NCBI RefSeq assembly: GCF_023806465.1
Contig: NZ_JAMSLS010000001.1
Span: 372,001-436,000 of the forward strand
Source of the DNA: Thermomicrobium sp. CFH 73360
GTDB lineage: Bacteria > Chloroflexota > Chloroflexia > Thermomicrobiales > Thermomicrobiaceae
Direction of reading: 5' to 3'
DNA length: 64,000 nucleotides
Shown one piece after another: positions 49,169-53,220 of the stretch. A program made the position numbers and the translations under genes. The notes below the pieces were generated by a model. That model was given only the letters and a program-made list of their open reading frames with translations, did no database searches and had not been told where the DNA came from. Numbering within the stretch: the stretch's first letter is position 1; every line of letters starts with the position of its first letter.

Positions 49169-50155
49169 CTAGCGCCGTTCTCGTCCCACTTCGTAGTGCA
49201 CATTCCGGGCTTCGAAGAAATTGACGATCTCTGGCACGTCCACTTGCGTTGCCATCCAACGCAGTGGGTTGGGATTCCCGAAGGCCGGCGGTAACCCGAG
49301 CTCCTCGAGCCGCCGGTCGGCGATGAATCGCACATACCCGTTCAACGACTCCGCGTCGATCCCGATCAGCGGCTCCGGTAACACGGCCCGGTTGTATGCC
49401 TCCTCCAGCGCGACTGCTTCGAGAATGAGCTCACGAAGACCACGCCCGAACTCCGGGGTCATGATCTCCGGATGCTCCTCGAGGATCGTCGTGATGAGAT
49501 GGATCCCGAAGGAGAGATGCAGGGATTCGTCCTTGAGCACCCAGTCGACGATGCTGCACAGACCGCGCAGAAGGTTGCGCTGCCGGAATGCCAGTGCGAG
49601 TGCAAAACCCGAATAGAAGAAGATCCCCTCCAACACGACGAAATAGCCGACGAGGTTACGGACCAGCCGCTGCAACCCCTCCACGGTCTCCGTCTCCGGC
49701 AACGCCAGCCACGCCTCAGTCAGGCGACGCTGGAAGGCCTCCTTGGCCGCGACCGCGGGATACTCGAGATGCAGTCCAAAGACCCGCTCGCGGTCAAGTG
49801 GTAACGTCTTGATCACATATTCGAAGGCCATCACGTGGTTCGCCTCCTCCCAGGCCTGACGCGCAAGATAGAGCCGCGCCTCGGGAGCAGTCACCACCCT
49901 ATAGAGGCTCAAGAGGAGGTTCGTCGTGACCAGCGACTCCATCGGGTTGAAGAAGCCGAGGAACATCTCGACCGCCCGCCGCTCCTCGTCGGTGAGCCGC
50001 TCGAACCAATCGCGCACATCGTCGTGCAACGGCACCTCCTCCGGAAACCAGGTGTTGTGCTTCGCCTGCTGCACGTGCGCATAGGCCCACGGATGACTCA
50101 GCGGGAAGAGCTCGACAGCCGCGAGAGGATCACCACCGAGTAGCTTCCGACCCAT
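49169..50155 (-). CDS. nrdB: Ribonucleotide reductase small subunit with Phe at the radical-Tyr site (class Ic-like)
   Basis: A 328-residue ferritin-like protein from ATG 50155. Metal ligands read as Glu73 (PMES), Glu104 and His107 (WEEANH), Glu176 (VLEGIFF), Glu210 and His213 (KDESLH). The spacing matches the Chlamydia R2 set (E89, E120, H123, E193, E227, H230). The first ligand is Glu rather than Asp, and four residues after His107, where class Ia proteins have the radical Tyr, there is Phe111. This is the class Ic pattern, in which a Mn/Fe centre stores the oxidising equivalent. It is encoded 34 nt after nrdA in the same transcript. Confidence 0.92.
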   Translation of the reverse strand: MGRKLLGGDPLAAVELFPLSHPWAYAHVQQAKHNTWFPEEVPLHDDVRDWFERLTDEERRAVEMFLGFFNPMESLVTTNLLLSLYRVVTAPEARLYLARQAWEEANHVMAFEYVIKTLPLDRERVFGLHLEYPAVAAKEAFQRRLTEAWLALPETETVEGLQRLVRNLVGYFVVLEGIFFYSGFALALAFRQRNLLRGLCSIVDWVLKDESLHLSFGIHLITTILEEHPEIMTPEFGRGLRELILEAVALEEAYNRAVLPEPLIGIDAESLNGYVRFIADRRLEELGLPPAFGNPNPLRWMATQVDVPEIVNFFEARNVHYEVGRERR

Positions 50156-50189
50156 TGCCGTACCCTTCCTTCCAGCGTCATGCATGACC

Positions 50190-52496
50190 TCACTGACAGC
50201 TCTCGCAAACGCCGTTCAGGGTGCAGGCCACACTCTCTCGCGCCAGCACATCCTGCTCGGCCCGCTGCACCCACTGCGGCCGCCGCCGCGCCTTATTCAC
50301 CGCAACAGTCGACTGCTCCACTTCCATTCGTGACCGCACAAAGCAGTAGTAGGTACTCTTCAAGCCCTTGCGCCATGCGGAGAGGTAGGCTGCACTCAGC
50401 TGCCCCGGCCGATCGGCCGCGTGGTACAGATTGCGGCTCACCCCCATGTCCACCCACTTCTGTACGCGAGCTGAAACCTCGATGTACGCCTCCGCAGGAA
50501 TCTGGTAGGCTGTCGGGAATCGGTCGACGAGCTCCGGCGGGCATCCTGGTACGGCCCGCAGGTCACCTCGTGCAGCGACGATCTCCGGTAAGAGCGTCTC
50601 CCACAGCCCTCGCTGGCGTAGCTCCTCGACAAGCACCGGATTCACCTCGAGGAACTTCCCAGAGAGCGTCTGCCGACTGAAGACGTTGGCATAGTAGGGA
50701 TCAAGGCTCGGCGTCGTCCCGGCAATCAGCGCAATGGTCGCCGTTGGAGCGATGGCCATTACGGCGCCATTACGCATGCCACGCCGCACGCGCTCGCGCA
50801 GCGTCTCCCAATCCAGCCGGCTTGAGCGCGCGACTTCGATGGGCAGTCCACGCTCCGCCTCGAGCTCCGCGAGCGTATCCAGGGGGAGCACCCCTTCTGC
50901 CCAACGTGATGCCGCGAACGTGGGAAAACTTCCCCGCTCCACTGCCAGTTCACAGCTGGTGGCAATAGCGTGATAGCTCAAGAACTCGGCAATCTGGTCG
51001 GCGATCTCGGCAGCCTCTGGAGCAGCGTACGAAACCCCACGCCGAGCCAGGAGCTCGGCAAAGCCCATCAGGCCCAGACCGACAGGACGATTGCGCAAGT
51101 TTGCACGTTCGGCCCGCTCAGAGGGGTAGAGGTTGATGTCAATCACGTTGTCGAGCGCGCGCATCGCTCGCCGTACCGTCTCGGCAAGCCGTTCCCAAGC
51201 CAGCTCACCATTCGGCCCGCAATGCCGCGCCAGATTGACACTGCCGAGATTGCAGACTGCGACGTCCTCTCGACTCGTCGGCAGAAAGATCTCAGTGCAG
51301 AGATTGCTTGAGTGGATGATGCCCACCCCACGCAACTGGGAACGGAGGTTGCCCGCATCCTTAAAGGTGATCCAGGGATGGCCGGTCTCCATGAGGCTTG
51401 CCAAGATCTGCAGCCAAAGCTCGCGAGCGGGCAGCACGCGCCACGCACGCCGCGGGAGAAGCCCACTCTCAGCCTGCCGACAGAGCTCGCGATACCGGGC
51501 TGCAAACGCCGTTCCGAAGAGGTCCGGAAGTTCCGGGGCGACTGCCGGGTCAAACAGGTACCATGGCTCATCTGCCTCAACACGACGCAGAAACTCATCG
51601 GGAATCCAAAGCGCCGTATTGAGCTGGTGCGTGCGGCGGTACGGATCACCAGCATTCCGCCGAAGATCAAGGAACGCCTCCACTTCAAGGTGCCACGGCT
51701 CAAGATAGACACACATCGTGCCCCGGCGCCGCCCACCCTGACTGATCGAGGCAATCAGCGCATCGTAGAGATGGAGGAAAGGAATGAGGCCGCCGCTTGT
51801 CCCGTTGATTCCGCGCACCGGAGCTCCGACCGCCCGGATACGAGTCACGGCAGCACCGATGCCCCCGGCATATTTGGCCAACATCCCAAACTCGTAGGCC
51901 GAGCCGAGGATGCTTTCCAGGCTGTCTTCCACCTCGGCCAGATAACATGAGGCGAGTTGGTGGTGTGGCGTCCCAGCATTGAAGAGTGTCGGTGTGCTCG
52001 GCAAGTAGCGGAGGCTGCTGAGGAGGTCATACCAGCGCAGAGCCCAGGCGGTCCGCTCCTCAGGCCGCTCGGCCAGCGCCAATCCCATGGCCACGCGCAT
52101 GAAGAGGGACTGCGGTCGTTCCAGGATCTGCCGTGTTTCAGGATCTCGCACCAGGTAACGATCCGCCAGCGTGGCTACAGCCATGTATCCGAGCAAACGG
52201 TCACGAGCCGGATCTAAGGCTCCTGCAAGTTGCTCAAGATCGAAGCCGGCCAGCCGTTCGTCGAGTGCTCCACACGCAATGCCGCGCTCGATGTACCGGC
52301 GGAAATGCTCCGGATAGGACAGAACAACGCCGCTATCCGCCTCAAGGGCGATCTTCCGCAAGAGCAGTGCCGCCGCCTCCTTCTCCGCCTCGGGGCGATC
52401 TGGCAACTGCTGGAGAACTGCAAGGATTTGGGCTTCCAGAAGACTCGTCTGCGGCGGGATCACCGCTTGCAGTTCGAGTGGAAGCGTCGTTGCCAT
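50190..52496 (-). CDS. nrdA: Ribonucleoside-diphosphate reductase large subunit
   Basis: A 768-residue class I NrdA. The active-site Cys are in HHQLASCYLAE, SSNLCTEIFLP (NxCxE) and VCNLGSVNLARH; the two-Tyr relay lies in STYYCFVRS, and the C-terminal shuttle pair ends ...NGVCESCQ. An intact N-terminal ATP-cone is not evident: the ~70 residues before the core lack its usual motif, so overall activity control by ATP/dATP may be missing. GGGAGG lies 9 nt before the ATG and is contained in a hairpin downstream of a cobalamin riboswitch. It reduces ribonucleotides to deoxyribonucleotides with NrdB. Confidence 0.95.
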   Translation of the reverse strand: MATTLPLELQAVIPPQTSLLEAQILAVLQQLPDRPEAEKEAAALLLRKIALEADSGVVLSYPEHFRRYIERGIACGALDERLAGFDLEQLAGALDPARDRLLGYMAVATLADRYLVRDPETRQILERPQSLFMRVAMGLALAERPEERTAWALRWYDLLSSLRYLPSTPTLFNAGTPHHQLASCYLAEVEDSLESILGSAYEFGMLAKYAGGIGAAVTRIRAVGAPVRGINGTSGGLIPFLHLYDALIASISQGGRRRGTMCVYLEPWHLEVEAFLDLRRNAGDPYRRTHQLNTALWIPDEFLRRVEADEPWYLFDPAVAPELPDLFGTAFAARYRELCRQAESGLLPRRAWRVLPARELWLQILASLMETGHPWITFKDAGNLRSQLRGVGIIHSSNLCTEIFLPTSREDVAVCNLGSVNLARHCGPNGELAWERLAETVRRAMRALDNVIDINLYPSERAERANLRNRPVGLGLMGFAELLARRGVSYAAPEAAEIADQIAEFLSYHAIATSCELAVERGSFPTFAASRWAEGVLPLDTLAELEAERGLPIEVARSSRLDWETLRERVRRGMRNGAVMAIAPTATIALIAGTTPSLDPYYANVFSRQTLSGKFLEVNPVLVEELRQRGLWETLLPEIVAARGDLRAVPGCPPELVDRFPTAYQIPAEAYIEVSARVQKWVDMGVSRNLYHAADRPGQLSAAYLSAWRKGLKSTYYCFVRSRMEVEQSTVAVNKARRRPQWVQRAEQDVLARESVACTLNGVCESCQ

Positions 52497-52498
52497 TG

Positions 52499-52549
52499 CT
52501 CCGTCCTCCCTTCTCTCTTCCCGCGCCCAGGAGGCAGGGTAGGACGGAG
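52499..52549 (-). promoter_or_regulatory. Ribosome-binding-site-masking hairpin of the nrdA riboswitch
   Basis: On the minus strand ctccgtcctaccct (52549-52536) can pair with agggaggacggag (52511-52499), 13 pairs with one bulged A. The second arm contains the nrdA Shine-Dalgarno sequence GGGAGG. This looks like the expression platform: folding hides the site from the ribosome. Confidence 0.75.
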
Positions 52550-52662
52550 TCGGTGCGGATACTTCCCCGGGGAACGCAGCACCCGCGACAGCGCGCTCGC
52601 CTGCGCGTCACCGATCTCCGGCCCGCACCCACCCGCGAGGCGCGGTACCGCTGTGTCCTGCA

Positions 52663-52825
52663 GGACGGGTCGGTCTTCGGGCTTGCGGATCGTCCTACTA
52701 GCTGCGCCTTCCCAGCGGATCTTCCGCCAGTGGCTTTCCGGTCGCAACGACCAGGTGCAGTGTTCGTCCCCGCTCACCGCTGCGGGGCAGCGCCGGAATT
52801 ACACCGGACTTCCCAGCACCCGCCC
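52663..52825 (-). promoter_or_regulatory. Cobalamin (B12) riboswitch upstream of nrdAB
   Basis: Minus-strand order: outer stem gggcgggt (52825-52818), GGGAAGTCCGGTG, TAATTCCGGCGCTGCCCCGC, AGCGGTGA, CCACTGGC, GGGAAGGCGC, and AGCCCGAAGACCG, closed by acccgtcc (52670-52663), which pairs with the first arm. These are the conserved core blocks of the B12 aptamer, including the TCCGGxGCTGCCCCGC (B12-box-like) segment. It sits 167 nt upstream of nrdA. In other bacteria such elements switch off the B12-independent reductase when B12 is plentiful and a class II enzyme can work. Confidence 0.95.
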
Positions 52826-53220
52826 TGGGTTGGAGAGACCACAAGATGTTGCGCTTCTCCCAAATTGCACCGCTACATCTCGTGGTCACATCCACAGTGT
52901 ACGTGCAGGTAGTATGCCTGACAAGATGTTCCAGAAAGACCCACCCGATCGCTCAGTCAGGGCAATGCAGCGTCCAGCTCCGTTCGTGTGCACCTGTGCC
53001 ACTTGGCACAGCGCGCGGGAAACCAAACAAGAAAGACATTGGGCAGCGGTTCTGCGCGGCAAGGACGGCATGGAAGCTCTCTCCACACGACCAGAAAATC
53101 AGGAACCCCTTAGTACAGCTGAAGGCCCTCCAGAAACTCCCTATAGGCTTCGTGCAAGCCAATCTTCTGCTATGATGACGATGCCAAAGGCTGCAGGACC
53201 AAAGACCAAGGGGGGAGTGT
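52826..53220. other. Divergent region between riboswitch and glycosyltransferase gene
   Basis: About 395 nt without a recognised gene. It should carry the leftward nrdAB promoter (upstream of 52825) and the rightward promoter of the glycosyltransferase gene, whose ribosome binding site is AAGGGGGGAG. It is less GC-rich than coding DNA. No convincing promoter hexamers or second structured RNA were identified. Confidence 0.45.

What the first reader, a model, noticed from the sequence alone, without database searches (positions are those of the whole stretch)
52663..52825. Cobalamin riboswitch controls a B12-independent ribonucleotide reductase
The conserved aptamer blocks are readable on the minus strand ahead of nrdA. 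B12 control of class I nrd genes is known (for example in Streptomyces) and implies a B12-dependent class II reductase (NrdJ) elsewhere in the genome, used when B12 is available.
Basis: partly seen in the sequence, partly recalled or inferred. Interest (0 to 1): 0.6.

Follow-up and report, generated by a model that had tools for sequence, protein, structure and literature searches.

The report
B12 riboswitch on backup DNA-precursor enzyme
A vitamin-B12-sensing RNA switch sits in front of the genes for a B12-free ribonucleotide reductase in a bacterium that also carries two B12-using versions, so the spare enzyme is probably made only when B12 runs out; this logic is already known from Streptomyces and Propionibacterium.

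Summary
Rfam Cobalamin (RF00174) matches window 52651-52838 (-) end to end at 88 bits, 155 nt upstream of nrdA. nrdA-nrdB (52496-49169, -) encode a class I reductase. NrdB carries the Phe/Glu pairing of subclass Ic (Mn/Fe), with the Chlamydia enzyme as best solved relative. The implied B12-dependent class II reductase exists: two nrdJ genes elsewhere in the genome. CbiC and CobS were not found, while a PduO-type adenosyltransferase was, so the cell probably imports B12.

New details: a pair of NrdR boxes between promoter and aptamer; a P13/L13 hairpin that can pair with L5; and a hairpin hiding the nrdA ribosome-binding site, above chance in four of seven leaders. Best mechanism: adenosylcobalamin binds, P13 forms, the ribosome-binding site is sequestered and nrdAB is off. 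Direct switching is predicted for only three of seven leaders.

The arrangement recurs in at least six phyla and is documented for S. coelicolor and P. acnes. New member of a known kind; low to moderate interest. Nothing here shows a B12 response.

The parts
52896..52924 (-). sigma-70-like promoter: TTGTCA, 17 nt, TACACT
   Evidence: only promoter-like match in the region, 9 of 12, 0.1 expected by shuffling; a TACACT-like hexamer at the same place can be read in most relatives' leaders. Consensus match only.
52839..52885 (-). pair of NrdR boxes (CCACGAGATGTAGCGG, 15 bp, GCGCAACATCTTGTGG; 31 bp start to start)
   Evidence: best-scoring pair in the whole 64 kb (33, next 28); shuffled windows top out at 27-31; same place in six relatives; nrdR gene in the genome. 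The box consensus was recalled from memory; the 15-16 bp spacing is confirmed by PMC12051234.
52651..52838 (-). cobalamin riboswitch aptamer (RF00174, full length)
   Evidence: 88 bits, model 1-189
52623..52645 (-). P13 hairpin CCGCGCC-UCGCGGGUG-GGUGCGG; L13 GCGGG can pair with aptamer L5 CCCGC
   Evidence: seen in the leaders: loop nearly invariant, stem kept through changes on both sides (G009 UUGCGUC/GGCGCAA). Kissing pair is inferred.
52499..52549 (-). hairpin that sequesters the nrdA Shine-Dalgarno (CUCCGUCCU pairs AGGACGGAG; SD GGGAGG at 52505-52510)
   Evidence: equalled or beaten by 2 of 500 shuffles in the window, 0 in G006 and G004, 5 in G001, 27 in G002; not above chance in G005 and G009. 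SD closed when P13 is imposed.
50190..52496 (-). nrdA, class I ribonucleotide reductase alpha subunit, 768 aa, no ATP-cone found
   Evidence: TIGR02506 644 bits (cut-off 341); PF02867, PF00317; no ATP-cone family reported
49169..50185 (-). nrdB, radical-generating beta subunit, 338 aa, subclass Ic type (E83 E114 H117 F121 E186 E220 H223)
   Evidence: best solved relative Chlamydia trachomatis R2 (1syy, E 7.6e-84); ligand set; Phe/Glu pairing marks Ic

Best explanation
A Cbl-I type adenosylcobalamin riboswitch represses translation of nrdAB, which encode an oxygen-dependent, B12-free (predicted Mn/Fe, subclass Ic) ribonucleotide reductase. When AdoCbl is plentiful it binds the aptamer, L5 and L13 kiss and P13 forms; the strand that could otherwise pair with the anti-Shine-Dalgarno strand is then occupied, the Shine-Dalgarno hairpin closes, and the cell relies on its two B12-dependent NrdJ enzymes. 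When imported B12 is short, P13 gives way, the Shine-Dalgarno is exposed and NrdAB takes over. Upstream, NrdR (which senses dATP/ATP) can shut off the promoter of nrdAB and of the larger nrdJ, so total reductase supply is set by NrdR and the choice of isoenzyme by B12. Shown: aptamer, genes, two nrdJ, NrdR-like box pairs, SD hairpin sequence. Inferred: ligand, kissing pair, direction of switching, metal content, NrdR binding, B12 import.
For: RF00174 88 bits. Class I NrdA and Ic-type NrdB. Two NrdJ over the NrdJ_Z cut-off, 606 and 599 bits. No match to CbiC or CobS, PduO-type adenosyltransferase present. NrdR boxes at nrdAB and just upstream of the 1117-aa nrdJ, nrdR gene. SD hairpin above chance in four of seven leaders. 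P13 imposed: SD opening 0.00-0.33 in all seven at 37 C; P13 free or removed: SD opens to 0.43-0.87 in G000, G002 and G005. No intrinsic terminator between promoter and nrdA. All eleven genomes (own included) at least 90% complete with a riboswitch at nrdA have a NrdJ match, one of them a fragment at a contig edge. Precedents: S. coelicolor nrdABS, P. acnes nrdAB.
Against: In G006, G004 and G001 the SD hairpin is predicted closed whether or not P13 forms, and in G009 no SD hairpin was found, so the platform is not uniformly explained. At 65 C the window's own leader is predicted closed in all states, and at 37 C it opens in the free but not in the P13-removed calculation. Both characterised precedents were reported as acting on transcription. 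One relative with nrdA and 1.5 kb of upstream sequence has no riboswitch (G013, L015), so the coupling is not obligatory. NrdJ is present in most relatives anyway, so its co-occurrence is weak evidence.
Confidence: 0.8

Rival explanations
1. The same riboswitch acts on transcription rather than translation: ligand binding exposes a Rho-entry stretch or pauses polymerase in the 150-nt GC-rich leader, so the nrdAB mRNA ends early.
For: In P. acnes much nrdAB transcription stops before the first gene (PMC3848588); S. coelicolor nrdABS is reported as transcriptional. Three leaders show no predicted opening of the SD.
Against: No intrinsic terminator was found; the SD hairpin is kept in position in most relatives with different sequences and exceeds shuffles in four of seven.
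Confidence: 0.25
2. The aptamer is a decayed relic; nrdAB is controlled only by NrdR.
For: Close relatives differ in predicted platform behaviour; NrdR boxes are intact.
Against: Full-length high-scoring aptamer, core nearly invariant across six genomes whose flanks diverged; kept at nrdA in every near-complete genome of the genus.
Confidence: 0.04
3. The leader inverted repeat (ACCACGAGATGT...ACATCTTGTGGT) is an RNA hairpin of the riboswitch leader rather than a protein operator.
For: The two boxes together form a roughly 12-bp inverted repeat in the window and in several relatives.
Against: Each half is itself a NrdR-like palindrome at the expected 31-32 bp spacing, a pair also lies upstream of one nrdJ that has no riboswitch, and pairs lie -43 to -2 from the aptamer in 17 of 19 loci, most of them of other phyla.
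Confidence: 0.08

Closest known systems
Streptomyces coelicolor nrdABS B12 riboswitch (Borovok 2006, seen through PMC4991794)
   Same: AdoCbl riboswitch in front of class I nrdAB, class II nrdJ elsewhere, NrdR control in the same genome
   Different: Chloroflexota host (Thermomicrobiales), predicted translational platform, predicted lack of B12 synthesis; nrdS was not looked for here
Propionibacterium (Cutibacterium) acnes nrdAB leader (PMC3848588)
   Same: nrd-box at the nrdAB promoter plus cobalamin riboswitch in the 5' UTR; nrdJ is the B12-dependent alternative
   Different: P. acnes shows early transcription stop and a single nrd-box; here two boxes, no terminator and an SD hairpin
Chlamydia trachomatis class Ic ribonucleotide reductase
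   Same: Phe in place of the radical Tyr, Glu as first metal ligand; 285 bits to the window's NrdB
   Different: the Chlamydiae-type nrdA loci sampled (L073, L075, L079, L105) have no riboswitch hit; metal content here is untested
RF00174 riboswitches on isozymes of B12-dependent enzymes (category in PMC3766115), for example metE
   Same: B12 switches off the B12-free substitute
   Different: the target is nucleotide reduction

Membership tests
Cobalamin riboswitch, RF00174 | covariance-model score over the gathering threshold | tested here: met
   88.0 bits against 31.5, full length
Cobalamin riboswitch, RF00174 | L5-L13 kissing interaction with a P13 hairpin downstream | tested here: inconclusive
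   P13 conserved with changes on both sides, L13 GCGGG complementary to L5 CCCGC; loop too invariant for covariation
Cobalamin riboswitch, RF00174 | binds a cobalamin and changes expression | not testable with these tools
   needs bench work
Class I ribonucleotide reductase, subclass Ic | Phe at the radical Tyr position paired with Glu as first metal ligand | tested here: met
   F121 and E83, set EEHFEEH; Phe/Glu pairing distinguishes Ic (PMC8463856)
Class I ribonucleotide reductase, subclass Ic | Mn(IV)/Fe(III) cofactor | not testable with these tools
   needs purified protein
Class II reductase NrdJ elsewhere in the genome | match over the NrdJ_Z (TIGR02504) cut-off | tested here: met
   605.9 and 599.4 bits against 399.95
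NrdR operator | two boxes 15-16 bp apart near the promoter | tested here: met
   15 bp apart, score 33 of 44 against next best 28 in 64 kb; consensus recalled, spacing from PMC12051234
NrdR operator | bound by NrdR with dATP and ATP | not testable with these tools
   needs bench work

The most novel reading that the evidence does not exclude
NrdR operator plus abutting Cbl-I aptamer plus tyrosyl-free (Phe-type, Mn/Fe) nrdAB is a composite control cassette kept or exchanged across at least six bacterial phyla, with the B12 switch preferentially attached to the Ic subclass rather than to Tyr-type class I enzymes.
Probability: 0.3. Interest if true: 0.45.

Novelty: new member of a known kind. Interest (0 to 1): 0.24.

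Why it matters
It adds a Chloroflexota (Thermomicrobiales) case to a regulatory logic known from Actinomycetota, and suggests that the pairing of NrdR boxes with a B12 aptamer on nrdAB is widespread. For an organism that appears unable to make B12, the switch would decide whether DNA precursors come from B12-dependent or oxygen- and metal-dependent chemistry.

Tried and rejected
A search of the leader for intrinsic terminators gave none. The pairing of riboswitch with Phe/Leu-type NrdB in the sampled loci (16:2 against 29:26, Fisher p 0.006) was kept only as a lead because the loci are phylogenetically related and were the best 80 of a limited scan. Borovok 2006 is not held and was read only through PMC4991794. 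The idea that nrdJ presence in relatives proves coupling was dropped: nearly all relatives have nrdJ.

Full report
Observation. The Rfam covariance model for the cobalamin riboswitch (RF00174) matches the minus strand at 52838-52651 over its whole length, 88.0 bits, E 2.3e-20; nothing else in the window reaches a gathering score. In the whole genome (3.06 Mb, 38 contigs, 99.67% complete) it is the only hit above the cut-off; a second, sub-threshold hit of 24.7 bits lies on contig 12.

Genes. The aptamer ends about 155 nt before the ATG of a 768-aa class I alpha subunit (TIGR02506, 644 bits), followed by a 338-aa beta subunit whose best solved relative is Chlamydia trachomatis R2, the class Ic enzyme. 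The six metal ligands are kept (E83, E114, H117, E186, E220, H223) and F121 stands where Tyr carries the radical in class Ia. The Phe/Glu pairing is the published mark of Ic (PMC8463856). No ATP-cone was found in either subunit. NrdAB is therefore B12-independent; that it needs oxygen and Mn/Fe is inferred from the subclass.

The class II partner. The genome shows no CbiC and no CobS but has a PduO-type adenosyltransferase. These are marker genes only, but they suggest that B12 is imported and converted to AdoCbl.

Second layer of control. Between a TTGTCA-17-TACACT promoter and the aptamer lie two NrdR-like boxes 15 bp apart (52839-52885), the best such pair in the 64 kb (33 of 44, next 28; ten shuffled windows peak at 27-31). 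Experiments in other bacteria put the working spacing at 15-16 bp (PMC12051234). The same pair sits in the same place in six relatives, and a pair lies just upstream of the larger nrdJ, which was not used to find it (L068 799-846, ATG 925). The genome has nrdR. The box consensus itself was recalled, not taken from a paper.

Expression platform. Seven leaders of the family were compared. A hairpin directly after the aptamer (P13) keeps its loop UCGCGGGUG while its stem changes on both sides; GCGGG of the loop can pair with CCCGC of L5. Just before nrdA a hairpin covers the Shine-Dalgarno; G004 has a paired change (CUCCGUUCU with AGAACGGAG), and G001 uses a different sequence to the same end. 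Against 500 dinucleotide shuffles the pairing is equalled or exceeded 2, 0, 0, 5, 27, 228 and 403 times in G000, G006, G004, G001, G002, G005 and G009. With P13 imposed the SD is mostly closed in all seven; otherwise it is predicted to open in three (G000, G002, G005) and changes little in the others. There is no intrinsic terminator. I therefore favour translational control, with moderate confidence, and keep transcriptional control as the main rival.

Distribution. Of 80 nrdA loci from named genomes, 18 carry RF00174 upstream on the coding strand: Actinomycetota, Bacillota, Pseudomonadota, Planctomycetota, Acidobacteriota and Chloroflexota. In 17 of 19 loci examined (these 18 and L017) the best NrdR-box pair in an 850-bp stretch starts 43 to 2 nt before the aptamer, although several of these scores are modest. 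Sixteen of the 18 have a Phe- or Leu-type NrdB against 29 of 55 without a hit; relatedness is not corrected for.

Known or new. B12 riboswitch control of nrdABS in S. coelicolor is published (Borovok 2006, via PMC4991794), and in P. acnes nrdAB has a nrd-box and a cobalamin riboswitch, with the authors drawing the same conclusion about nrdJ (PMC3848588). B12-riboswitch control of isozymes of B12-dependent enzymes is a recognised category (PMC3766115). The case is a new member of a known kind.

Noticed in passing
L067 1599-6879 (genome contig 12, 234098 onward): A sub-threshold cobalamin riboswitch hit (24.7 bits; similar weak second hits in most family members, 34 bits in G002) precedes an operon: secreted protein with an alpha/alpha-toroid (squalene-hopene-cyclase-like) domain, a 311-aa membrane-anchored protein without Pfam match, a CbiQ-type T component and a double ABC ATPase. 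It looks like an ECF-type B12 importer; the toroid plus small domain recalls intrinsic factor and transcobalamin, but PDB sequence search gave no such match.
   Followed up: partly
L023 and L104, nrdB: The riboswitch-linked NrdB of one Thermomicrobiales genome has Leu instead of Phe or Tyr at the radical position (HTHTLLYI), as do three Verrucomicrobia-type loci without the riboswitch.
   Followed up: no
nrdJ of relatives G001, G002, G013, G016, G037, G054: NrdJ frames of about 1500-1870 aa are split at profile position 282 by a long in-frame insert, which looks like an intein.
   Followed up: no
L015 (G013 nrdA): A same-family nrdAB with Ic-type NrdB has no cobalamin riboswitch in 1.5 kb upstream, suggesting loss or non-acquisition of the switch.
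   Followed up: no
G024 contig 259, 12631-17842: nrdJ and nrdA lie next to each other on the same strand in a same-order relative.
   Followed up: no
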